64,000 bases of DNA. It comes from Nereocystis luetkeana. Taxonomy: Eukaryota > Sar > Phaeophyceae > Laminariales > Laminariaceae. The translations under genes and the position numbers were made by a program. This document shows, piece after piece, positions 4,561-62,700 of the stretch (the first letter of the stretch is position 1; each line of letters opens with the position of its first letter). Location of the stretch: positions 8,001,324-8,065,323 of the forward strand of contig JARUPZ010000024.1 of assembly GCA_031213475.1 (NCBI GenBank). The letters run 5' to 3'. A model generated the notes under the pieces. That model was not told where the DNA came from. It saw only the letters and a program-made list of their open reading frames with translations, and made no database searches.

Positions 4561-7500
4561 ATGATACCGTCGCCTTTCGCTCAGGAAGTGGTATGTACCA
4601 AGCACGAACAGATAGCGAAGTGGCGAACCTGGGTCGATCTCACGCACCGAGTGCCCAATGCATCAGTGCGCTTGTTCTGTTGTCCTTGGGCTGGAGGCAA
4701 TAGCCTTGCGTTTGAATCGTGGCCTGAGCGACTGCCTGGAGTGGAAGTGGTGCCTATCCTTCTTCCAGGAAGACTCACGTAAGTTCACATGGGAGGATAA
4801 ACATGACGGTGGTTTGTGGTCACGCGTAGCTTCGGCATAGTAGATTAGCGGGTGAGTGTTCTCCTACAGTGGTTGGCCTTTTCCTGCCTTCAGCCGGCAA
4901 ACACCTTACAACGCATTGAATGATGAACGCAACACCCAGCGGTCACATCATGGCTGGCAGGTATATCCTGCAGTATGCGTTTGATTTTTTTTTTTTTAAC
5001 TTGCAACACAGCGTAAATCCGTATCACAGTAGCTCACATCGCCCAGGTTTCGCGAGTTTTACCATAGAAGCACTTTAGTGTATCATGGGGCCAACAGTTT
5101 AAGGCGTCCTGGAGACCATTTATCCTTTGAGTTGCTGATCACAAGGGATTATTAGCCCTTTCACTACATGCACTACAGTACAAACATTATAACAGTATTC
5201 CACACTAATGGCAAGTGGGTTGTTCCCAGAAACGTGGGTTCAGTTTTAAAGCGAGTGACGATTCCAGTTTAACTGTGCGTGGCACCCACTACATTCAACT
5301 GACATGCTCTTTACCATATGTTATTTATGTGTGCCTCACTTGCGAAACAATACGGGAAGACGGGCCTACGAGAGCGCCCTCACGAGCATTTCCGACATCG
5401 TAACGATGGTGGTTGAGGCACTCTGTGGGCTGCATCTCCTCGCGCACGAAGGCATCCCGGTATTTGCTTTCGGCCACGAGTTCGGAGCGCTAGTGGCTTT
5501 CGAAATATGCAGAAGAGTACAAGCGGACTTTCCCGTCAAGGGCCTGTTCGTTTCTGGCATGAGCTGTCCTCAGGTGGGAGGTGCCCCCTTTAAAAAAAAA
5601 ACGTTTATATTGTAATCCTCTCGCGGGTGGGTAAAACCTTAACTCAAGAAGATCAAGCTCACCACACTTTCATGAATGTGTCGTGCGAGTCAACTTAACG
5701 TTGTGTTAATACTGCAGTATACAACGATTGTTGTACTGCTTACGGTGCTAACACTGCCCGTTCAATATGCAGCGCATGAGGCAGAAAACGTGGATATATC
5801 CACGATCATTTGTCTATCGAACTGCTAGAAAAAGGGCTGAAGAGCATGCTGGAGTTATCATTACAGGAATACCGTATCCCTAATGTGTTGTCATATACTC
5901 TCCTCTTGTGCAGATGGCGCATGAGCGAGAGAAGATGTCTATCCTCTGCCCGACATCCCCAGACGGGTACGTTCTTCATGCCAAAAACTCCGAGGTACGT
6001 TCAACCTACTTCCAACGTGGCACAGGGGTATACCCGGAGTAAATACCAAATTACGCCTTCAATGCCGCGCTTAGTGTCAACGGGTTGAATAAACAAATGT
6101 AAAATTACTGCATGCACGTGGGAAGAGGCGTGTCGTGTCTGATAAGAATTATTCATCCCCCATATACCATGCCTTTAGAGAAGACCGTTGAATGCCAACG
6201 GGGGGATCCATAACCGTTAGACACGTGTGTCTCAACCTTGCCGAAACATTTTTTTAAAAAGCAGTTTGAGGATGCGATGTTGAGGCGAGGACCTGTGCCG
6301 CTGGAGTTGCGCGAGAACAAAGACTTGATGGGAATATTTACACCTCTTTGGTTTGCGGACCTCAGGTAAGGTGCTACATAGTTAAAAGAGCGTACACCAC
6401 GCATCCAAGCGAGTCTGTCACTCTCACTACTGTGATGAGCTATGGACTTTGTATGGGAATGCCTGCTTCCTATCGATATTCGAAATTCTCGGCTCGTCTT
6501 ATGTCTGACCCTCTCTCAACTCTCCGGCGTGCCTACTGTATATAGCGCGGTGGACTCGTACGAATACCTAAGTGGCACGGCGCTCGAGTGCCCAATCTAT
6601 AGCTTCGGGGGAATACACGACGGCGAACAGGACATCGGTGCTTGGGCAATGGAGACCTCGTCGGACAGGAGTGAAAGTGTGCTGTACCCCGGGGGGGGGT
6701 TCTATTTGCTGGATCCGGACAATGAGGTATCCACGAAGAATAGGTTGTAACCATTTCCACTCGTAGGCGCATTTATCCCATGACGCCATTTTAAAATTCT
6801 GTAAAAACACTACCAGGTATGGAATAATCACTTACACGTACTTGTAGCTCCTTGTCACGTCCGGTTGTGTTTTGACAGGCTGTGAATCCGCATCCGGCAA
6901 GCGTGAGGCACTGCTGACGGTACCTGCAGTAGATTGTAGTAGCTGAAAACGCCTGCTGACGGTCGCTAGCTGAAACGGCTAGTCAGGCACGGTCATTTTT
7001 ATAACGACCTCGACAAGTTGGCGTGCTCAACAACCGGGAGGGGTGGAAAACATGCACACTCACTGTAAATTGGAGGCATGTCCGCAAGTGGGGTAGATGG
7101 AGGTTTTGCGGGCACACTCGCCGTGGGGGGGCTGCTTATCCCAATCGGTATGTTGTTCGTTGACCACCATCGCCAGCTGTGAAGCTGCTCCTTGTGATGA
7201 AGCATCGTCAACTCCCTCGTTTCTCTCGGAGAAGTCGCTTTCACTTGCTGCCGTTGAATATGACAGCTCGGCGATGCCTCAGGTCCCGTTACACCCTTCT
7301 GCCCCGAACCATTCCACTCTAATTCGTAGTTTGTCCCCAAAACGTGGGTACAGGCTATTGGCGGGGGACAAGACAAATGCGATTTTGAATACCGCCTTAG
7401 CTGGGCGGAAGGCGCAGTAGCTCTTCCCCACCTCTTAACCTCTTATAATAGTGTTCTCCGGCCACTGCGCACACGATTCTCGAACGGGTGACGTCAAAAC

Positions 7501-7772
7501 GTGGGCTAATCGGGGGTTTAAAGTGGTCACTCGGGATCTCATAACCGCGTTCCGTCTCTTCCATTGTACTTGTGTAACGCCAATTATGATAGGACGAATG
7601 CACGTCGACAGCGTACCAGACACATCGCATGAAGAAAACAAGAACGACCAACCCTTCTCGTTGGTGTGCTGGCCCTATCTATGGTCAAATAATACAGGAA
7701 AAGGTTCTTCAGTTCTTCAGAGATCGCTTTATCGAAGAAGGAAAGCCGGACGAAGAACCATGGCACATGTGA
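4561..7772 (+). CDS. Type II thioesterase-like alpha/beta hydrolase lacking Ser and His of the triad (probable pseudoenzyme)
   Basis: Six exons join with consistent phases: 4561-4778, 5360-5573, 5914-5994, 6262-6365, 6546-6726 and 7704-7772, giving 288 residues (typical family length about 240-250). Landmarks of the GrsT/surfactin-type thioesterase family (COG3208) are in order: RLFCCPWAGGNSLAFESW (family RLF..P.AGG....W), LPGR, the nucleophile elbow FGHEFGA, the lid segment LRRGPVPLEL, the ALECPIYSFGG strand with HDGEQD, and PGGGFYLL near the end, followed by VLQFFRDRF. Active members hydrolyse acyl groups from carrier proteins of polyketide or peptide synthases. Here the elbow Ser is Glu113 (GAG) and the C-terminal GGH His is Gly257 (GGG); an Asp remains near residue 231. 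I infer loss of hydrolase activity, perhaps with retained acyl or protein binding. The start at 4561 gives a slightly longer N-terminus than bacterial relatives. No synthase gene is adjacent. Confidence 0.86.
5220..5239. repeat. Dispersed CCCAAAACGTGGGT-like motif, copy 1
   Basis: TGTTCCCAGAAACGTGGGTT lies in intron 1 of the thioesterase-like gene. Close copies occur at 7331-7350 and 45398-45418, and the first half recurs in the arms of the inverted repeat at 42229-42313. Confidence 0.6.
7331..7350. repeat. Dispersed CCCAAAACGTGGGT-like motif, copy 2
   Basis: TTGTCCCCAAAACGTGGGTA in the last intron (977 bp) of the thioesterase-like gene. It matches the motif at 45398-45418 with one difference over its core. 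Confidence 0.6.
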
Positions 7773-8341: not shown

Positions 8342-11300
8342 TCACTTGACATCACATTTCAGCTCGCCATCTACAGAGTGATGTCTCTCGGCATCCTTGT
8401 CCTCGACCTTCGAAGGCAGTGGTAGTGGTTGCAGCCAAGCCCTCATGCTCGACCTAGACAAACAAACTTCTCTGTACTTCTTGAAACCTGACCGCACCGC
8501 GACGAACGTTAGACCTGAGTCCTTGCTGACTCTGAAGCAGCATGCGCCAACCTTTGAGACGGTCTTCACGTTCATCTCATCATCGTCGAAGAACAGCATG
8601 TCTCGATACGCTACTCCGGTGGCAGCCGAGATGTTCTGGAGGGTTGGTTGCACGGGGTAGGATGGGCGCAGCAAGAACGCGTGCGTGACTTAATGATATC
8701 ATGGTTTGTACCGTCGCCGGTTAGCTGTCAGTTCCAAACAGGAAGGGCCCAAGCATGGCGGTGCTTTTTGGAAGGGCGTTGTTCTACACGCTCGCGTTCT
8801 CTCCTTGTTGTCCATTGATGCCGGTCAGCCTCCCGAGTTGTAGGGGTGAATACAGGTGGGGTAGGAAACATTGTGACCTTGATGGGGTCACTATTACAGG
8901 GATGTCTTGCAACGGGAGTGCTTTAACGCACCCGTCGGAACAGTTGTTGCTAAATTGTAACACTGACGCTACCGGTACAGCGTGCGAAAACACGCAATTA
9001 ACGCACCAGAGCCGCGCAATTTCGGGATGTCAGTATCCCTAACCTCAAAAAGAACACCGCACAAGTAGCGCATCACACACAAAGAAGTCAGCAGCAAAAC
9101 ACTTACAACATTTCAAACGTCAACGGCAGTACAAGGCAGCCCACACCTTGAAGTGCGTCGCCTTGCTTCCCCTATGTATCTCCACGCAGCAGAACATATC
9201 CAGGATCCCCAACGCTCGTAATATGCCTCTCGCCGCCCCTTCTATAGGGGAACGGCTAGCGACAGCTAATCGAATCGAGCCCTGACGAGAGGGCACGCGA
9301 GCGAGCAAGGATCGCCTTCCGTTAAAATCTTCCGTTAGGAAAGACACACACATGAGCGGACAAGCGGTCTATAAACGCCAAAACATGTCATGTACTATTC
9401 AATATCTGGTACCCTGGAGGATGTCGCCATTGAAACAGCTCGATCTGAATTGTGATGGCGTACCGGGACAACTTCTTACTTCTTTATATGTACGTAAACT
9501 ACAAGTACGTAAACAGTAGAACGTACCGCTACGAGCTTGAAATTTGAAGCCCCGACTATCACACCACAATATTCTGGAGTGAAACCATGCTTCGGCCAAA
9601 AGCGTGCTCATGAACACGCGAGAGCGTACCCACTCAGTAGAGGGTACTACAGCAGGTGTGCGCCACCAATAATCTCATGATGTGGAGAACACAAACACAC
9701 ACCTGCTGGTTAAGGCGGCGTAGGACATCCAACACCTGCGGGAAAAGCCGCACGACCTTCTCCGCCCCTTGCAGAGATCGGCACTTCACGGCGCAGCCCT
9801 CGTCGCCGAGTCGACTGTAGGGCCCTGCAGTTTGTTCATGGCAGTAAAATGGCCACAGCTACGCGGGCATGACGGTTACGGTTGCAGATAATCAGTGAAG
9901 GCAGATGCCATGTCAAAAACAACAAAAAGACACGGACGACAACGAAATTCCGGGTCTATGAAACGCCACTCAACAATCGGTAACTCCTGCCACGCAAGCC
10001 CGCTCGAGCACGTGGACCGCGCGATCTCGATTTTGTTGTTTTGAGCCTACGTGTTGGTTTGGGCTGTCGAACAAACGCATCGATTCCCGAAAATACCCTA
10101 TGTTCTGGAGGCTGGAGAGGGCCCAAACCTGGCTCGTCGAAAAGCTGACAGGAGCGATAACTACTTTGTGTGCGCACGGCGGTATTGCAACGGCCAGCGC
10201 CCGTTGCATGCAGTGTATCACTCAACTTGACTCCATCCTTCGAATAGGAGCACAGTGGCGGAGATAATAACGTGCGCTTTTTATTTTTTTGTTTCGTACC
10301 GACATCATGTAGGGAACTAAAGGCCCCTTTCAATCATTTGAAAAACGAAAATTCGAATTTCGTAGGTACCACACACCACAACGTCATAACTGTAAGCTCG
10401 AGCATTTTTTTCAGTACAATAGAACCACTGCCGTGCTGCTACGTACTGCTGTGTCTGTTTGTGGATATCACTGCCCCAACCCGCGCCCCGACCAGCTGGT
10501 AAACCCCGTGTGCGTGTCAAGGACGGCCTCTCAGACTCCGTGGACTGTTGATTGCATGTAATCGACAGGAAGCGAAGTCGGTCAGCCGGTCGTTCATGAC
10601 CCTGTTGCAAACAGCAACAGCAGTAAGCGGTATTATTCGTAATTACTGTTCTTGGAGTATTCAGGATGAAGGGGTAGACTCTACAGACACCCTACTGTAC
10701 AGGCAACACACAACACTATAATTACATGATTGATTGCGAAAGCACTACGAATACTGGGAGCGGGTCGGGGCGCAGCCCCTACCCACGCCCGCGCCCCTCC
10801 CAGCCGACCTACCCCGTGTGCAAGTCAAGGGTGGCCTTACTCCGTGGATTTTTTATTGAATGGAAAATCGTCAGAAAGCGGAGTGGGTTAGCCATGAAGA
10901 GGCACTGGGACTCACGTGTAGGGCAACCCCTCTGTACGCGATGACGCCCGTCCCGTCACCACGGACTGCACTGCTGTGACGATGAGTTAATGTGATAACA
11001 ACAAGAAACAACGCTATGATACGTATGAAAAAACGGGGATGGGGAACAAATGAAGACCTGCCTTTCAGCTTCGGTTGGAGCCGTGGATGCACCCTGATGG
11101 TGAATGTTTCGGGGGTTTTCGGCCGTGGTACCTAAAGTCGACCACCCGAACCCTAACACAAACCCGAACGCTATGGGGTGACCAGTGCTTGGATGCTGTG
11201 GCTTGTGAAATCTCTAGGCTGCTTTGGCCGGCTCGGGATGCTGTGGCTTGGAAAAACTCTAGGAGGTTGGTTGCGCCGCTTACAAAACCCCCTTTAGCCA

Positions 11301-12280: not shown

Positions 12281-15200
12281 ATGCAGTCATCGAATACTCG
12301 CTTGATAGTGAAGAACGTTCCCAAACACGTAGACGAGCGACGCCTGAGGCAACACTTCGCTGAGAGAGGAGAGGTCAGTTCGCGACAACCGGAGCGGCGT
12401 CAATGCACCACTATAGCCTACAGACCACAGCAGCAGTAACCAACCATTCTGGCGAAAACCAAAGCAATGCACAGACGTCAGACGGCGTTCGAATTTAATC
12501 TCATAGGGGCGGCGCTCTAGACGGTCCCGTTGAGCAGGGCGGCGGCCACTATGTAAGTCGCCACGAATTTGGGTGGGAATTACATTACGATCGCAAGCTG
12601 CTGTCTTGGGCTGGCTTTATGAGTGCAAGTCTTCAGTCTCCTTTCTGCTGGTAAGTCAAACATGGTCTACAGCAGTAGTATTCGTACGTACTTTGTACCT
12701 GCTCGTACCAGTACGACGACGAGCCTACCAGGTACCAGGCACTACCAGGTACCAGTATGTACCAGTATATCTGGCGAGAGGCGGAGAAAGTGGACCAGTA
12801 GGGCTCTGCGCGTAAATTCAATACGGTTGTACAAGGCGCTTCGCTCTGAAGGAATATGTGCATTTTGTTCTCCCCGAAGACGGAAAATAAATAATTACCA
12901 GGTACCTCTATTTCCAGTACGAAATTATTAAAGTGAAACCGAGGTCAGTTCTCAGGTATTTCCTTGTTTTTTTCCGTCTGCTTTTCGCGTACGTACATAT
13001 TCAGTACCTACGGCACGTGCGTATCAACAGTGCGACAGGCAGGGTGTACAGTTTGCCATCCTCTCGGGGGTCAGGTCGGGTCAACGTGCCCAACTGGGCT
13101 AAATTGACACACGACACGAACGTGGAAGTGTGGTGAGCTTAAGCTTTATTTTTACCAATCCGTCGGAGGATAAAAAAAAAAAAAAAAAAAAAATCACGTA
13201 CAGGACGACGCACACACCGGGTAGGTACCGTCAATCAACCAGGAAAGAGCCCTCTTGGGGGAAGAATAAACGAAATATTTGCAGGGCTCTTCGCACCATG
13301 CGAAGCGGACAGTGGTCCTTGATTAAGTATAGTTTTTTTATGATCGTAGTTGCAAACTGGCGACTTGATAATGCCAAGAGTCCCGCCGCCATGCTTCAGG
13401 AGAAAACAGCTCGGACGCCACATACGCTTCGTCTCCCTGGCGGTTGCCGTACGTACGTACACACGCCAGGTAGGGTCCTTATTTTCTTCTTTTGATACCT
13501 GGTATGCTGTACAAGGCGCTTCGCTCCGCGGGCGGCCTCCCGCTGCGCTCGTTCAGGGAGGAAAAATACACCAAATTACTATTGATATGAATATACAAAG
13601 CGGACAGAGGTCCATGATTGAATATAGATTTTTCATGATCGATCGTAGCAAACTGGTGACTTGAGAATGCCAAGAATCCCGCCGCCATGCTTCAGGAGAA
13701 AACAGCTTGGACGCCATATACGCTTCGCGTCGCGAGCGGTTACCGGACGTACGTGGGCCCCTACGCTCACTCACATGCCGTACGTACGTACATACCCGAG
13801 GTAGGGTAATCCTTTTCCCCTTTTGACATGCTTGCTGTATGTACTGCTGTACGAAACACAGCCTTTTCCTCTTTTGACATGGAAAGAGAAAGCACAGCAC
13901 GGCACTGCAGCACCGCAAAAATAATGAAAATGAAACCGAAAAAATTGGAAAGAAAAAAAATCCCCGTCCCCTCATGAAACATTTTTCTGTCTGGTTGGAA
14001 CTTCTTGCACCGGTCAAAAAAATAAAAAAAGCCGTACAGCAGAGCTTCTCTCTCAGCCTCGTACGCCGCCCGCCCCTCTCGCGACCACCTCGCCACCGAT
14101 TCGGTCCGGGTAAAGCTTTCCTTACTCTCTGCCACAGTGAGCCCCGTCGCCCGCCTCGCGTTAAGCCCGGTGCTCACTGTGGCCGTCGCTCGCCAGCTCG
14201 AAAATGTTGTCATTCAGGCAGGGTACCTCCCTCTGTGATTTTCAGCCCGGTCGCAAAAATAAGCACCGTTCGAAGCCTATCTTGCAATTTCGAACGACCC
14301 TTATATCTCGTACACACTCTATCCAAAATCACAAATGGAGGCCAGACAGAGCCCGTTCATGCATCCCTCGTGTCTCGAGGCACGCGCGACGTCTAGGCAC
14401 GAAAGTGGCGACCGCGCTCCTTGCAACCCCCCCTCTACCCGCCAGCACCCGCTGACACCCGCGACGGCGCGGGGCTCTCTCACTATGACGTGCTCGAAGT
14501 ACACGCACGCGCACGAAACGAAAGAAGAAGAAAGGAAGAAAGGACCGAAAATGCCAAGAGAGATGGAGAAAACAAAGAACCGCTGGAAAGGTCCGGCATG
14601 TAATGAAAGGGGGCGATTTCGAAGTGGGAGCTCAAGGAGGCCAGGGGTGTACCAACCGAGCACGCTCAGAGAGTGAGATATCTACAAGTATTTTTATGTG
14701 TAGCAGGAGTTGTTGTAGATTGTGTACCTGGTATGGCCTACATGGTACCAAATGGGATCGGCGTGCCAAGTGGGCCTCCGGCGGCTCCTGCGGAGGGCTG
14801 ACTATTTTTCTGCACACTAAGTGGAAGCAGGGTGCCCAATGGGATGGGCCCACTGCGGGGTAAAAGTACCAAGTGAGAACAGGGTGCCTGGTGGTAAAAA
14901 AAAAATACGTGTGAATCAGAGAGCCTTCCACCTACGTCCAATTTCTCCGCCGGTGCCACATAAGGGAGCTATCGGGCGATGCGTGTATCAGGAGGAGGAG
15001 GGGCTTGGAGGCGCTGTTGCGCAGCAGCTATCTGTACTTCGCAGTAGCAACACTCTACGATCAGCAACCAGTATATTGCGTTTTTCATACAAGACTTTGC
15101 CTGGTAGATAGACTTGCGTACTTAATGCAGATCTCGAGCACACCCTCGACAATTCTCTCACCTCCTCATCCAAGCCTCAGCTCTTGGTTGCCGACTTGAT

Positions 15201-18200
15201 TTTTTTTTCGGGATCGATCCTCGAGTTATTTTACGCCGATTTAGATATCATTCTTCTATTGCTTGCCGGCGAGCCTTTTCCCTTTTTCGGCCCGTTTTAG
15301 AAGAAGAGCCTTCTTTTTCCATGCGTTTAGTTTTTGTGTGGCTTTCCTTCTTACGTACCACAAGCATGCTGTCGTCGAGCATCTACCGCAAGGACACCAC
15401 AATATTGCACAGCCCATCAGTCCTGCACAAAGCAGCAAAGTAAGCAAGTACTGTACGTACCGACCAGAGCGTTACAACGTACGCCACCAGACAAAGTTGG
15501 CGAGAGCCAGCATGTCGTCGAACCTTTATACAGCTCGCTGTGTTCTCAAACGAAGACATCGAAATCTGCCCGGCCTACAAAACTACGTGTCCTCGTACTC
15601 ATAGGAGCTCTTGGCATTTGCAAGTCATCAGTTTACATCTACATTCGTGGACCTCTTACTGTAGCCCGCTTCGCTCGCACTTTGTGTTCGTACTTATGAG
15701 CGAAGCGCCTTACACAAAGTATGACGTACCGGTATACCGGTATGACTCCATGCACCCTCTCGTATCGATCAAACCAAAATGTTGAGGCTAACGCACCACC
15801 GGCGATGTTTCTAATATTCATATACCTGGTATTTGGTACACCGGAGCTGCTTTGCCCAGTCCCCCCACGTTGGTAACATTTAGTTTGGGCAGTACACATG
15901 GATGCGGTTGGCCGCTGCGTTTACAGTATCTCATATTTCGAGAGAACCGTGCATTACCAGGCCCGTGTGATGAGTTGTCTACTGCTGCTGCCAATGGGTG
16001 CCGCACCAACGATATGTTGCAGGTATATATGACTCATATTGATCGCCTAGTATCTTCTATCTGCTTCCATGCACCGCAGGTTTCCGATGCAAAGATCGTG
16101 CGCACCAAAGACGGGAAGTCGCGCCAGTTCGCTTTTGTGGGATTTACTTCAGAGCACGACGCTGAAGAAGCTTTGAAGTACTACAACCGCACGTTTCTCG
16201 ACACCAGCCGGATACAGGTGAGGACTCGCGCCATCAGTCTCGACCTGGCAATAGTGCCGTATGAATTTTGGCCCTGTTATTCCAAGCCGTGTTGCCCTGT
16301 ATTGCGAAGGCTGCGCTTCACACTCTGTTCCACCACTTTTTGAGTTCGCCTTGTTGCCCTATCGTGTACTGAAAAGACCGCCCCGACGCTACCCCTTCGC
16401 AATAACGACCATTACTCCGCGGGCACGGCAATGGACTGTTGGTTGTTCAGGAGTAGATAGGGAGCGTGCCCTGTTGGCCGCACAGTGGCAGCTCTCACTC
16501 TACTACTGCACTAGCAAGCCTACCACGGCTCGCCCAACCTCCCGCCCTCGTGTGCGGTCGTTACTCCGCCAACGTAACCTGTACGCGATGCTTGTTTTTA
16601 TTTAGAGTGGAAGGGAAACATAATTGTATGCATCCTTGTACGTCGGTAGTCATGTTTCAACCACGCGTAGACCGATTGGGTTGGCGGAAGACACATGCCT
16701 CAAGTCTAGGGTGCCCGTAAAAAAAACGTGTGCAATTATAGGATTTTTTGTGTTGTCTTCCTGCGCTAAACTGGGCAACGCCTCGCGTGTCATTCTTACC
16801 CCCGGTCCTTGATTTTTTTGCCTCAGGTCGAGCTCGCGCAGCCTAGAGGAGATGCCGGCATCGCTCGTCCGTGGAGTAAGCATTCCGAGGGTAGCTCTCG
16901 GTCTCAAAAGTTGTCTGACGAGAGAAAACGCAAGGAAGCCAAGGCCAAGGGGAAAAACGATGTCGCCGGTAGCGATGGGAAGGCAAGAAAATCTGCGAAA
17001 GGCAAGGAAGGCAGCGGGCGGGGAGGGGCAGAGAAGGAAGAGTTTATGGCGGCGCTCAAGAAGCGCAGCGAGGCGAGGTTCTGGGACAACGACGACGCAT
17101 TTGCCGACCAACCGCCATCGGAAGCCGTTGCTGCCGACGAAGATGAAGATAAGACAAGCGGGGCAAGCTCGGACGAAGATGACGAGAGCAGCCATGACGG
17201 GGGTGGAAATTCGCGTGGTCCAGGTAATGGTGAGACGAAAACGGTAAGCGAGGCAGACCGCAACAAAAAAAGTGAAACCATGATGTCGAACATGGATTGG
17301 CTCCGGTCCAAGGTGGGTACGGGTAGTGAAGGAGGAGTCGCGCAAGAGACCGCTAGCACTGGGAGCGACAGCGATGAGGGCGAGGAGATGGAAGGGGCAG
17401 AGCCTAGCAAGGGGGCGGTGGGGAACACACGAAGCCCGGGACGACAGTCGCGGGAGAAACAGGGAAGTGCTTTGGTTTCTCCTCCGAGCGCCGCTGCCGC
17501 CGCCGCCGCCGCCGCCGCTGCGGGCGCTGCCGATACCCTCGATGAAGGAAATGACGAAGTGGAAAGCGGGCTGTCGGTGGGGCGGCTGTTTGTTCGAAAT
17601 CTGCCGTACACAAGCACTGAAGACGACCTCAGGGAGTTGTTTGAGGCTTTTGGGGCTTTGTCCGAGGTCCACCTTCCTGTAGACGACGTCAAGAAGGTGC
17701 GACACCTTGGCAGTTGTTGGTCCGTCCATCTTTGATGGAACTAAGTCTGGACTTTGGGACGAGTGCACTTTTATCCAGTCAGTGAAATTTAGGTAGATAT
17801 CACTAAATGCCGGCTGTCGAAGCCCGCAGTTCTAACGCAGTTGTATGTTTGGTTTGTATAGGCGTGCCCACCGTGGCGTTCGATACAGTTAATGCCGAAA
17901 TCGTTAATGATATTCGTTCGCGATTTGATGGCGTCTCTTCTCTTGCATACGCTGTAAGCGAATCAAAGGAATGTAGCATTCAGGCAAACACCCTTACTTT
18001 GTCATACCCATTCAATCTAGGCACCATGGCGTTCGACGACATGATTTGCGAAAGTTATTTATATTTGGTCAACGTTTCAAAAATGAGCACGCAGCGCAAC
18101 GTTAGGGTTTGCCGATTTTGTTTTGAGGTAGGTGGAACGGCCTTTATGTAAACGATGTACCGTCACCGTTGCCGTGTTGCCTTGACCAACCATTGACCAA

Positions 18201-39724: not shown

Positions 39725-42215
39725 AGGGATCATTACGGTCATCCGTCCGTGCACGGTGCGGTTTCTTCAAATAAAAAATCCTACGGTCCCATTTGGTGCG
39801 GTTTTAGAAAATCGGAAATCTTACGGTGCAGTTCGGTGCGGTTTTCAGATATTGTAAATCCTACGGTGCGGTTCGGTTTTGTGATATATCCTACGGTGCG
39901 GTTCGGTGCGGTTTTCAAAAATCGGAAATCCTACCGTGTGGTTCGGCGCGGTTTTCAGATATTGTGAATCTAGGTGCGGTTCGCTTTTGTGATAAATCCC
40001 ACGGTGCGGTTCGGTGCGGTTTTCAAAAATCGGAAATCCTACGGTGCGGTTCGCTGCGGTTTTAGAAAATCGGAAATATTACGGTGCGGTTCGGTTTTTT
40101 GTGATATACCATACGGTCCGGTTCGGTTCGGTTCCCTGTTGAATCGGTTTTTCTACGGTGCGGTTCCAATCCCCGTAGGGAAAACCATACAACACACGCA
40201 TTTCTCTACGGTGCACCGTATATATAAACCGTACAAAACCGCGGTTTCGTACGGTTCTCAGGCTTTTCATCGGGGCACTAACGAAACCGCTGTTTCTCTA
40301 CGGTGCACCGCATGAATGAACTGTACAAAACCGCGGTTTCGTACGGTTCTCAGGCTTTCTCTCGGGGCACTAATGCAACCGCTGTTTTTCTACGGTGCAT
40401 CGAATGAATACGCCGTACAAAACCGCGGTTTCGTACGGTTTCTGACGCTTGTTCTCGGGGCACTAACGAAACCGCTACAGGCAGCGTATGAATAAATCGT
40501 GCAATAGAGTGTCTGCGCAAAAGAAAAAGTAGTACGAATTTTTCCTCATCTATTCCCCCGTTACCGACGACTCATCAAAAAGCCTAATCGAAATTGCATA
40601 AAAATGACGAAGTTACGCATTTTTGGAAAACATATTATACTCGAGCCACATTTGTGTGATATGAGATTCGACCGCTGCATTCTGTTCGCCGAAAACTCTC
40701 CGGATGCTTTGGATTGGCCAACCTTGACCCGAGAGTGGCCTGGAGCCATGACATGTCTGCTACCGGCGGGGTTTTGCGAGAATTGCTGCCGCTGCTGCTG
40801 CATGCCGACTCTGCTGCCTGCTGCTGCAGCAGAGAGGTAGGTGCTGCTGCAGCTGCTGCTGCACGTCACGGGCTCCTGCTAGTACTGCATGTAGTGTGCT
40901 GCTGCTGCTGCTGCTGCTGAAAGTATGTGTGCTGCTGGCTGTGCAGTGCTGTTGCTGTAAGCGCTGCGGCAAGCAAGCACTTCGGTAAGCAAGCGCTGCT
41001 GCAAACAAGCGCTGCTGCAAGCAAGTGCTGCTTCAAGCAAGAGAGCCACCTCAAGCAAGCGCTGCTGCAAGCGCTGTTGCAGGCGCTGCTACTGCTTTCG
41101 GCAGCTGCTGCTGCTGCTGCAAGCGCGCGCACCCTTGCCGTCACGCTCCTGTGATCTTCGCCGCTCCGACCCCTTTTCGGGCAGAGAGGACAACGAAGAA
41201 GAACGAGGGTCGATCTTCTCGTTGTGGCGGCGTTGCTTGCACAGCGAGTGTCGAGGAGCGTAAGTTAGATCGCACGTCTGCCTGGTGGTGTTTGGTGTTA
41301 CTTACTACTGCTGCTGCTTACTGCTGCTGCTGCTGTGCTGCAGGTAGGTACTGCTGCCTGCACGACTTCTGTTCTGCTGGTTGGGCGCTGCAAAAGTGCT
41401 GCCGCTGCTGCAAGTGTTTATTTTTCAAACTACCTAAGAATCCAATATTGAGCAATTTTTCGTCTCCGATTATGCGCATGCCGGAAGGCTTTCGATTTTA
41501 ACCATCTTTCCGACGGAAATCCTTGATACATGAAAATAGAATGCGCAGACACTCTAATGTTTCTGATAAAATGTTCAGTTTTTACAAATATCCTATTTTT
41601 TTCTGATATTTCATACCGGTATTTCCTCTCTTCCTATTTTCTGGCAGGTGTACTTCCGGAGACTCGGAGTATATCATATATCAGAAATCTATAAATATAA
41701 ACAATTTAACCTTTTTTTGTTTTTCAACCACAAAAATATTCAAAATATGAAATACCATTAGATCAACCAAGCCAGCGGAAACACTTTTGACACCAAACCG
41801 TGCAGAAACCGTCATGAGCCGTGCCAAACCGTGACCCTATTGCACAGTTCCGCGGCCCATGGAACGGCGTTTTTCTACGGTATCGACTTAACCGCACCGT
41901 AAAATAACCGATCTAACGGTTTTTGCACCGTATCTGGACGCACACGGTGCGGTGCGGTTTCTATGGCATTCCTACGGTGCGGTTTCGATGGCATTCCTAC
42001 GGTGCGGTTCGGTGAGGTTTTCAGATGTCGGGAACCCTACGGTGCGGTTTTAAAATATCGTAAATCCTACGATGCGGTTCGGTGCGGTTTTCCTATTTCG
42101 TAAAACCTACGGTGCGGTGCGGTTTTCAAGAGGCAAAAAACCTACGGTGCGGTGCGATGCGGTTAACCGCACCGAACCATACCGAACCGATGGGAAAAAC
42201 CGCACCGTAAACACC
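39725..42215. repeat. G-rich minisatellite (TACGGTGCGGTTCGGTGCGGTTTT), interrupted and end-inverted
   Basis: From 39725 to about 40135 a unit of about 36-46 bp, TACGGTGCGGTTCGGTGCGG plus TTTTCARAWATYGKAAATCC, repeats about nine times. From 40140 to 40480 a related unit (TCTACGGTGCAYCG with AACCGCGGTTTCGTACGGTT) repeats three to four times. The first unit resumes at 41940-42160, and the array ends with its own reverse complement (AACCGCACCGAACC, 42163-42215). Between lie CTG-rich DNA (40770-41430) and an A+T-rich stretch (41520-41790). Confidence 0.9.
40770..41430. repeat. Dispersed CTG/CAG trinucleotide runs
   Basis: Repeated CTGCTG runs, several of five to seven triplets, alternate with a GCAAGCAAGCGCTGCTGCAA unit near 40970-41090. 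They produce long Ala, Leu or Ser-rich open frames in all phases, with no splice or start context that supports a protein. Confidence 0.85.
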
Positions 42216-42779: not shown

Positions 42780-43830
42780 TTGTCGCTTCTACGATCTTTG
42801 CTTCTTTGCGTTCTTTGCTTTCTTTTGCGTGCTTGCTTCTCGTCCCACCCTTTTTTCCCGGAACAACAGAAAAAAAATCTCGGAAAAAGAAAAAAGTTGA
42901 TTTTGTTTTTTCACCGGTTTGGGAGGCTCTCTTTCGCTTTTATTCACCGACTGGTTGAAATTTCTTTTGCACTTTCTTTTTTCCTTTTTCATTCTTCTGT
43001 TTCGTATGCGTGTGTGTAGTCGGAGCACGGCGACGCGAACGAGCCTGGCGCCGTCGCGGGTGTCGGCAGATGCTGGTGGGTAGAGGGGAGGTTGCAAGGA
43101 GCGCGGTCGCGGTTTTCGTGGCTAGGCGTCGTGTGTGCCTCGAGACACAAGGGAAGCATGAATGGGCTCTGTTTGGCCTCCATCTGAAAAATTAGACTGA
43201 GTATGTACGAGTCCATAGGGGTCGTTCGGGATTGCAAGCTAACATCCAAGCGGTGCTTATTTTTGCGACCACGCTGGACTATGCACAGAGACGTACGCCG
43301 TCTGACCATCGACATCGCCGAGCTGGCGAACGAGGGTCACGGTGGGCGCCGGGCTCCACGCGGCGCGGGCGACGGGGGATCAATGTGACAGAGAGGGAGG
43401 AAAGCTTTACCCGGACCGAATCGGTGGCGAGGTGGTCGCGAGAGGGCTGAGAGAGAAGCCCTGCTGTTCATTTTTTTGGTTCTTCGACTGGCTGCTGGTG
43501 CAAGGTGTTCCAGGGGCAGACAATTATTACACGAGAGGGGACGGGGTTTTTTTTCTCTTTCCGAATTTTTCGGTTTCATTTTCGTTGTTTTTGCGGTGCT
43601 GCTGCTGTGCCATACTGTGCTTTCTCGTTCGTACATACCAGGCACATACAGCATATCAAAAGAAGAAAATCAGTACCCTACTTGGGGTATGTACGTACGT
43701 ACGTACGACATGTGACTCTTGGCATTATCAAGTCGCAAATTTTCAACTACAACACTCATCGACCTTCTGTCCGCCTCGCATATTCGATGTACTTTTCCTT
43801 CCTGAGCGAAGCGAAGCGCCTTGTATATGA
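42780..43830 (-). mobile_element. Dispersed repeat, copy B (inverted relative to copy A)
   Basis: Reverse-complement relative of 13500-14600. One end, at about 43798-43816, is GAGCGAAGCGAAGCGCCTTG. The middle carries the counterpart of [14 protein letters not shown] on the minus strand (about 43390-43440), and the far part matches 14330-14570. Copy B has lost any coding capacity. It lies upstream of the dynactin gene. Confidence 0.75.
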
Positions 43831-59700: not shown

Positions 59701-62700
59701 CGTCTTGGTTGCCGGCACCAACCTGTCTCCTCACGCGGTGGCAGCTGTGAGCGCGGAGGTTGCTTCCTCGGTAACCGAGGCGGAGGGGCTCGTGGACGGT
59801 CTCTTGGGAATCATTCAGGTCAGAACATACAGTAGTTGTCTTTCTCATCTCAGCTACATGCTACCAGGTACCTGGTATTTGGTTTGTTCGAATGACGTAT
59901 GACCGGGGCTCACGTTTTTTTGTAGAGTGTTTCGGCTCTCTCTGATGTCCTTCGTTACCTGGTATGTGAATGCACCCGTTCATGATTGTGGCCAGAATCG
60001 TGAGGCGGTATCAGACTGCTTGCTGGCTTGGTTCAATCTGCATGTTGCCGAAGCACTGGCGCTCGGTCTTATAGCGCGCTTGAAGAGCAAATATCGTCGA
60101 ACACGTCGTGTTACATCCATGAGTATTTTCCTTTAGTCTACCGGCGTGTTGTGTACGAATACGGAGTTTTTTTTTCAATGCTGCCGCACGCGATTCTGTT
60201 TAATGGATTCGTTTAATTCCAATAACGGCAGGACGAAGGTGGATTGCCCCCTGCGGGGTGTGCGAGCACCGTCTCTGTTCTCTCAGCAACTGCCAAGAGT
60301 ATCGGCATGCGCCGTTCCGCGGTCATAGCTTCAATCGCCACTGAGGGTGGTGATCCAGCTCACGCTCCACAAGGACGCGAAGGGGACGAGAGCAACGGAA
60401 GCATCGCCGCGGCTGCGGCTGCGGCAGCGGCTGCGGCTGCCTTTCAGGATTGCTTGATTTGCGCCAGACGTGCTGTTCTGGCCGTAACGGGTGCGGTCCT
60501 GCGGGTGAGTTGTGGGGGCATAGTTTTATTCTACGGCTGTACTCTACTCTACTGTACTGTCATATTCTGGTCATAGGTATCCACCTATCACCCAAGACAT
60601 CCGGCGTATCTCCATGGTAGAATTACTTGAAGGGCCACGTGAGGTCGCTTCGCTGAACAACTACAGTAGTTTGCCTCGGGATTGTCTGTTTTCCCAAGCT
60701 AACTACGAGTATTCATACTGCAATCGTCTCTCTACCTTGGCCAGCATGATACAACAGTCTTGACGGTCGACTCTGTTTTTGTTGTCGATTAGTCACGGGA
60801 ACCAACTATGACTGAAAACATTGCAGCTCAGGAAGGAAGGAGGTTATGGGCTGAAATTATGTGGTTGCAGCGTGAACATCGCAATGGAGTGTGCTTGCGC
60901 CCTTACTTATGATATAAGAAATATCATAGCGGGTATCGGTTTTATATTGCTTAGTTGGCCTAAAGTGATTCGCGTCATACTTTTATACTATGCGATTGTG
61001 TTTGTGATTTGTGGCCGTGAGCATAGAGCTACTATAGGCCTTGGCAGTAGCAATGTATACACCCGGCTGATAACCTCTGGGTAGTATGTACTGCAAATAT
61101 GTGTCCGTCCTGAAAGCGTTGCGTGTTGCTTGAAAATGCAGCGCTGCCAGTACCCCAAGAGGCTGGGTTCATACTCGTGCCCATCTCAAGCACAGGTCTA
61201 TGTGCTGTCCTCGTTTCGCTTTGCAGGATACACATCAATCGCGAATTTCTAGCTCAAATCTCAACGCGCGCAAGGACGGACAGGCGGTGCTCTGGCAAAC
61301 CATCCGCGGATTGTGGGGCGATTTGACGGTGAGGGCAAGATTGCCTTCTTATATCATACCAGTACTTGGTATACTTGTTAATAGTGCGACGAACCAATTA
61401 TGATCAAGTGTTGATGAATGCCGACAGTCCCTGAATACTATCGATTGCCTTTTATCGCCGCTCTTTGTTTCGCCCGCTATCGCACGGCGACTCCGTTCCT
61501 TCCAACGTTCTGAGGACTGCTGTGGCATCTTGGTTAATGGGGTTTATTGACCAGCGGGGTGTACGGAATGCCGTAATATAACCTCCCGCTCTTCCCTTGT
61601 GAAACGTAGGCCCTCAGGAGCGCATCTAACGCCGGCGGCAGCAGCTGGTGCGACAAGTTAGAGCAACTGGCAACTGGTGAGAAGCAAATGTGGCCGCCCC
61701 ATATATTACTTGGTGATGGAATTTTACAAAGCAGATGGCGCGCTTTCTCTATTAAGTTCGTCAAGGTGATACGAAGTATGTTAAAATAGCATCAATAGTA
61801 TCAATAGCATCAATAGCATCAATAGTATCAATAGCATCAATAGCATCAATAGCATCAATAGTATCAATAGCATCAATAGCATCAATAGCATCAATAGCAT
61901 CAATAGTATCAATAGCATCAATAGTATCAATAGTATCAATAGCATCAATAGTATCAATAGCATCAATAGCATCAATAGTATCAATAGTACGCGCCCGTGC
62001 GAGGAAGGGGGTGCTGTCGCCCGAGGGAGATAAAACCAGCGTGAACGGATGCTTCGGTGTTTGTTCACGCACCTCCCTTTTCCGTCGAGTCACACCTTAG
62101 CATCCCTGCTGCTGTTGCTGCTGCTGCCACTGCTGCTGTTGCTGCTGCTGCCACTGCTGCTGCCACTGCTGCTGCCACTGCTGCTGCTGATGTACTTGTC
62201 TGGTGATATACTTGCACCGCCGTTGACAGGAGTCAGGGATGTCTCGGGCAAGATTTCAACCCACGCCGCGGACACACAGAAAACCGCCCCAACTGCGTTG
62301 GAGCTCGCCGAACAGGTACATACGGAGGCGGATAGGTCTGATCTTGACGGTTGCGAAGTGTGCATCGATTTTCATGGCGATACTATTAATAGTATTTACA
62401 TTTGATATCAATCGAAAATCTTCCGAACTTGCCCTGCAGACATTTCGAGTACATTTTCGAAGCATCCACTCAGGAAACCCCCCGATATTTTTCAAACGAT
62501 CTTGTTTCTATTTTATTTTCACCAGGTATTTCGTATTTTTACCCGGTATTCTGTATTTAGTAGTCTACAATAGAGGTGGCGTCATCACCAACGGCCAAAT
62601 TGAATATGTTGAATACGTGCAATGTTGATTGGTTGACCTCGAACCGGTAAACTGCAACTTGGAAGGTTGTGTCTCTTCGGCTAACGGCGAAGGAGCTCGC

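What the first reader, a model, noticed from the sequence alone, without database searches (positions are those of the whole stretch)
4561..7772. Thioesterase fold with both catalytic Ser and His replaced
In a six-exon model whose phases all agree, the nucleophile elbow reads GHEFGA where the family has GHSxG, and the terminal GGH motif reads GGG. The surrounding fold motifs (AGG, LPGR, LRRGPVP, the Asp strand) are well kept. The gene is spliced and open, so it looks like a maintained pseudoenzyme and not a decayed gene. A carrier-protein-binding or regulatory role is possible.
Basis: partly seen in the sequence, partly recalled or inferred. Interest (0 to 1): 0.72.

Follow-up and report, generated by a model that had tools for sequence, protein, structure and literature searches.

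The report
Thioesterase-like gene lacking catalytic Ser, His
A spliced gene in a large eukaryotic genome encodes a type II thioesterase-like protein whose catalytic serine and histidine are replaced, while a related gene with the full active site sits elsewhere in the same genome; it looks like an enzyme copy that lost its chemistry but kept its shape.

Summary
Six exons (4561-7772, +) give an open 289-residue protein matching Pfam Thioesterase PF00975 (E 1.7e-25) and human OLAH and RifR. Glu113 (GAG, 5478-5480) replaces the nucleophile Ser and Gly256 (GGG, 6697-6699) the catalytic His; Asp230 is kept. Ser is found in 85 of 85 relatives and His in 84; 17 of 17 not chosen by this motif have both. 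The protein keeps 33 of 39 positions conserved in the family. New here: the same 465 Mb genome has a paralogue with Ser, Asp and His intact, sharing three intron donor positions and phases. So a duplicate seems to have lost its chemistry beside an intact sibling. Ser loss is solid. His loss is weaker: its codon lies in a nine-G run, so one G-run event or a base-calling fault could explain it. Expression, selection since the loss, and binding partners are untested; the organism was not identified. A plausible pseudoenzyme: interesting, not a new kind of system.

The parts
4561..4778 (+). exon 1: start codon, N-terminus, AGG and LPGR motifs
   Evidence: model; Pfam PF00975 match begins at residue 37
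5360..5573 (+). exon 2: nucleophile elbow strand and helix (GHEFGA)
   Evidence: the own-genome PF00975 match lies in this exon
5478..5480 (+). GAG, Glu113 in place of the nucleophile Ser
   Evidence: Ser in 85 of 85 relatives at this column
5914..5994 (+). exon 3: start of the lid region, longer than in bacterial relatives
6265..6365 (+). exon 4: lid end, RRGPVP and FADL
6546..6726 (+). exon 5: Asp strand (GGIHDG, Asp230) and terminal PGGGFYL
6691..6699 (+). G9 run that covers Gly254, Gly255 and Gly256; GGG at 6697-6699 replaces the catalytic His codon
   Evidence: His in 84 of 85 relatives
7698..7772 (+). exon 6: C-terminal helix and stop codon

Best explanation
The gene is a eukaryotic paralogue of a stand-alone type II thioesterase (TEII) that lost its Ser-His chemistry after a gene duplication, while a sibling on another contig kept the triad. 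Shown: the fold-level homology by sequence, the two replacements, the retained Asp and fold positions, the intact paralogue and the shared intron sites. Inferred: the protein is made, folds as a TEII, and now works without thioester hydrolysis, most likely by binding an acyl carrier protein or acyl-thioester (or the active sibling) and so protecting a chain or tuning the sibling. The binding role is the weakest step.
For: PF00975 E 1.7e-25; OLAH E 4.8e-21 and RifR E 5.7e-21. Ser 85/85, His 84/85 in relatives; both in 17/17 plasmid relatives not chosen by the elbow, five of which are also among the 85. Window protein keeps 33 of 39 positions conserved at 90% or more, and the six lost include Ser113, His256 and Arg201. 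The paralogue with Ser, Asp and His keeps 37 of 39. Three donor positions and phases shared: after LPGRL/LPGRM phase 2, after SCPQ/SPPN phase 0, in FADL/RADY phase 2. The pair is split from 43 bacterial rows at 88.4/99 support. Neutral-drift simulation: by 0.2 substitutions per site only 0.65% of 2000 runs have no stop, while five of six changes at the two codons would still be rare.
Against: No expression, orthologue or activity data. The paralogue pair is saturated at synonymous sites (15 of 49 fourfold sites identical), so selection after the loss cannot be dated. The window tip is 1.66 times longer than the paralogue's (1.22 against 0.73), which fits relaxed constraint as well as new function; four further conserved positions are changed. 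Two of the window's five introns are not matched in the paralogue, and the paralogue has two that the window gene lacks; its model has one inferred and one missing exon. His lies in a G9 run. The exon 2 acceptor is weak.
Confidence: 0.62

Rival explanations
1. A recently silenced gene on its way to becoming a pseudogene: catalysis was lost when selection relaxed and the frame simply has not broken yet.
For: Longer tip branch than the sibling; further conserved positions lost (F107V, A108F, G181P, R201F); a weak acceptor at exon 2.
Against: No stop, frameshift or broken splice dinucleotide in 289 codons and five introns; the Ser codon needs two or more changes and the His codon three, which under drift would tend to be joined by stops; 33 of 39 conserved positions kept.
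Confidence: 0.2
2. Partial artefact: the His is really present and the G9 run is a base-calling or consensus error; the Ser to Glu change is real, so the enzyme is still without its usual nucleophile.
For: The His codon is replaced only by G's that extend a G run; the intact paralogue reads GGAGGACAC at the same nine bases, so all five differences are to G. G9 is one of four G/C runs of at least eight in 64 kb.
Against: The frame is right on both sides of the run, so a simple run-length error does not restore His; the run lies within a coherent exon.
Confidence: 0.13
3. An enzyme with altered chemistry: Glu113 at the elbow acts on acyl-thioesters (as nucleophile or base) without the His.
For: The elbow frame GHxFG is otherwise intact and an acid sits exactly at the nucleophile site; Asp230 is kept. 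Acid residues act on acyl-thioesters in other folds (hot-dog thioesterases, CoA-transferases; recalled, no call).
Against: No relative with Glu here among the 85 or the 13 further loci; narrow paper searches showed no precedent in this fold (searches listed nothing; one search listed two papers, not read); the His is gone.
Confidence: 0.05

Closest known systems
Human OLAH (S-acyl fatty acid synthase thioesterase, medium chain; PDB 4xjv)
   Same: Same family and order of motifs over residues 28-271, with near-identical end PGG-FYLLDP-NE.
   Different: OLAH has GHSMG and GGHFYLL; the window protein has GHEFG and GGGFYLL, and Phe for Arg in RAD.
RifR and other bacterial type II thioesterases (PDB 3fla, 3qmw, 2k2q)
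   Same: Sequence relatives over most of the domain; Asp kept.
   Different: RifR triad is Ser94, Asp200, His228 (passage of PMC6568194); the first and last of the three are missing here.
Paralogue on contig C2 of the same genome (L102)
   Same: 37% identity over 234 columns and three shared donor positions and phases.
   Different: Paralogue has Ser, Asp and His (GHSFGS, GGDEDG, PGGHFFL) and two introns that the window gene lacks. One small lid exon of it was not found and its third exon is inferred.
PacP TE0 domain of the pacidamycin assembly line
   Same: A thioesterase domain believed inactive because the usual triad is missing (passage of PMC8748450).
   Different: It is a domain inside an NRPS protein, not a separate spliced gene; no residue comparison was made here.

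Membership tests
Type II thioesterase (PF00975, COG3208-like) | Thioesterase-family profile match across the domain | tested here: met
   E 1.7e-25, 91.1 bits against a cut-off of 26.4, residues 37-274, profile 2-224 of 226
Type II thioesterase (PF00975, COG3208-like) | Nucleophile Ser in GHSxG | tested here: not met
   GHEFG; Glu113; 85 of 85 relatives have Ser
Type II thioesterase (PF00975, COG3208-like) | Catalytic His in the terminal G-x-H-F motif | tested here: not met
   GGGFYL; Gly256, with the G9-run caveat
Type II thioesterase (PF00975, COG3208-like) | Catalytic Asp | tested here: met
   Asp230 in GGIHDG, Asp in 85 of 85 relatives
Type II thioesterase (PF00975, COG3208-like) | Hydrolysis of acyl-ACP or acyl-CoA | not testable with these tools
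   needs purified protein
Pseudoenzyme | Homologue of an active enzyme with catalytic residues lost | tested here: met
   paralogue with the triad
Pseudoenzyme | Maintained as an expressed protein under selection | tested here: inconclusive
   open frame and 33 of 39 conserved positions kept, but dS saturated and no orthologue or transcript

The most novel reading that the evidence does not exclude
Glu at the nucleophile elbow is a working residue: the protein forms an acyl-glutamyl intermediate or uses Glu113 as a base, and so moves acyl groups between carriers by a chemistry not known for this fold.
Probability: 0.05. Interest if true: 0.75.

Novelty: new variant of a known kind. Interest (0 to 1): 0.42.

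Why it matters
TEII proteins are the editing partners of fatty acid and polyketide assembly lines. A copy that kept the fold and lost the chemistry, beside an intact sibling in the same genome, would offer a natural test of whether TEII proteins have a binding or regulatory role apart from hydrolysis. Stand-alone TEII pseudoenzymes were not found by the narrow paper searches made here, though a triad-less TE domain (PacP TE0) is described (passage).

Tried and rejected
Hidden second exon with Ser or His in an intron: no tblastn match over those residues on the window at E up to 10. Close relatives in viral contigs and in bacterial and archaeal genomes by single-protein patterns: none confirmed (4 and 24 pattern matches). 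A second copy of this gene in its own genome by PF00975: none among the three matches at E up to 0.001, with 11 candidates scored exon by exon; the third match, L101, reads as a lipase-like GHSLGGA frame, not TEII (my reading, no profile of its own was run). The protein search of the own genome did not complete, so further diverged copies are not excluded. A tree with 87 rows left the window on a long unplaced branch; a smaller one with the paralogue joined the two, using 43 of the 85 bacterial rows (every second). dN/dS of the pair: dN 0.70, dS 2.08, saturated, so not used as proof. NCBIfam gave no family. No tRNA or Rfam match helped to name the organism. The paralogue's third exon (L102 4938-4995) was picked from 59 candidates by its fit; it ranked fifth by a weak profile score, so it is an inference. 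In one search the fourth exon of the paralogue was ended one base early; one search used 5325-5477. Paper searches on brown algae, stramenopiles and polyketide synthases and passages of PMC3853752 gave no stand-alone TEII without its triad in what was listed.

Full report
The six exons join in frame, all introns are GT-AG, and the 289-residue product ends at TGA 7770-7772. It matches Pfam Thioesterase over residues 37-274 at E 1.7e-25. The best solved structures are human OLAH (4xjv, E 4.8e-21) and RifR (3fla, E 5.7e-21) among 14 distinct sequences matched at E up to 1. NCBIfam gave no match.

At the nucleophile position the codon is GAG (5478-5480), giving GHEFGA; at the catalytic His position it is GGG (6697-6699), giving PGGGFYLLD where OLAH has PGGHFYLLD. 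The catalytic acid Asp230 is kept. In PMC6568194 (passages seen) the TEII triad is mapped to RifR Ser94, Asp200 and His228; that these are the residues aligned here is my reading of the alignment.

How unusual is it? With five plasmid relatives, 85 of 85 have Ser and 84 of 85 have His. Because that scan fixed most of the elbow motif, I also looked at plasmid relatives found by whole-protein search: 17 of 538 records (fetched; the first five are also among the 85). Ser and His are present in 17 of 17 (one reads GYS in place of GHS). The 17 were picked by hand from the listed rows. The one viral-contig relative also has both.

The window protein keeps 33 of the 39 positions that at least 90% of the 85 share. 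The six lost are Ser113, His256, Arg201 of the RAD motif, Gly181, Phe107 and Ala108. So the fold skeleton is largely kept and the active site is hit, but not only the active site.

The most useful new fact came from the window's own genome, 465 Mb in 1987 contigs. PF00975 matched three places: this gene; a place on contig C2; and a place on C24 that reads as a lipase-like frame (my reading). The C2 gene (L102) has GHSFGS, GGDEDG and PGGHFFL, that is, Ser, Asp and His. It is 37% identical to the window protein over 234 columns and keeps 37 of the 39 conserved positions. Three of the window's five introns have the same donor position and phase in it: phase 2 after LPGRL/LPGRM, phase 0 after SCPQ/SPPN, and phase 2 in FADL/RADY. 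The window's other two introns are not matched, and the paralogue has two that the window gene lacks. One small lid exon of the paralogue was not found and its third exon is inferred. A tree of 45 rows (the pair and 43 of the 85 bacterial rows) puts the two together at 88.4/99, with the window tip 1.22 and the paralogue tip 0.73; both are long branches, so the intron sites are the better evidence of common descent. An earlier tree without the paralogue left the window unplaced.

Is the gene decayed? From any Ser codon to GAG takes at least two base changes, and from a His codon to GGG three. In a simulation of neutral drift on this reading frame, 5.7% of 2000 runs had no stop at 0.1 substitutions per site and 0.65% at 0.2, while the approximate chance of five of six changes at these two codons was 4e-05 and 0.00085. 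The two codons were chosen after the fact, so this is a guide and not a test. It argues that the rest of the gene was held while these codons changed. If the His codon changed in one G-run event, the argument rests on the Ser codon alone and is weaker. The paralogue pair gives dN 0.70 and dS 2.08 with 15 of 49 fourfold sites identical, that is, saturated, so selection after the loss remains unmeasured.

The weak point is the His. Its codon is the last third of a nine-G run (6691-6699), one of only four G or C runs of eight or more in 64 kb. The paralogue reads GGAGGACAC there, so all five differences in nine bases are to G. A run-driven change in the DNA, or a base-calling fault, could do this in one step. 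A simple miscount of G's would not restore His in frame. The Ser to Glu change has no such excuse.

Function. The best account is a TEII paralogue that lost hydrolysis and kept the fold, acting if at all by binding a carrier protein, an acyl-thioester or the intact sibling. Only the sequence part is shown. The genome has 11 exon-level ketoacyl synthase matches on three contigs, so a fatty acid or polyketide pathway with carriers is likely present; the carrier-protein and PKS searches did not complete. In Ectocarpus an incomplete multimodular type I FAS/PKS gene is described (passages of PMC4661987), but the window's organism was not identified. PMC8748450 (passages) names PacP TE0, a TE domain thought inactive for lack of the triad, and LgnA, a TEII with intact triad that moves an aminoacyl chain between carriers: both show that TE folds can do or be put to other work.

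Novelty. No paper held both type II thioesterase and pseudoenzyme, none held the phrase catalytically inactive thioesterase, and none held pseudoenzyme with nucleophile elbow; these are narrow word searches in an open-licence library. I rate it a new variant of a known kind.

Noticed in passing
window 8342-8689, - strand: Exon-like frame matching Acid_PPase (PF12689, E 2.2e-9), a phosphatase-like neighbour downstream on the other strand.
   Followed up: partly
window 15792-16340, + strand: Frame with an RNA recognition motif (PF00076, E 3.6e-8).
   Followed up: no
window 14074-14542 and 42976-43446: Long inverted repeat arms in three blocks, 74 to 93% complementary, about 29 kb apart, perhaps two copies of one mobile element.
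   Followed up: no
window 61785-61990: Array of a 9-base unit, AATAGCATC and AATAGTATC, more than 20 copies.
   Followed up: no
window 40201-40476: Three tandem copies of a 92-base unit, 63 to 89% like the first.
   Followed up: no
L102 3840-4600: The second intron of the intact paralogue holds repeated stretches and long C runs, seen by eye in the sequence.
   Followed up: no
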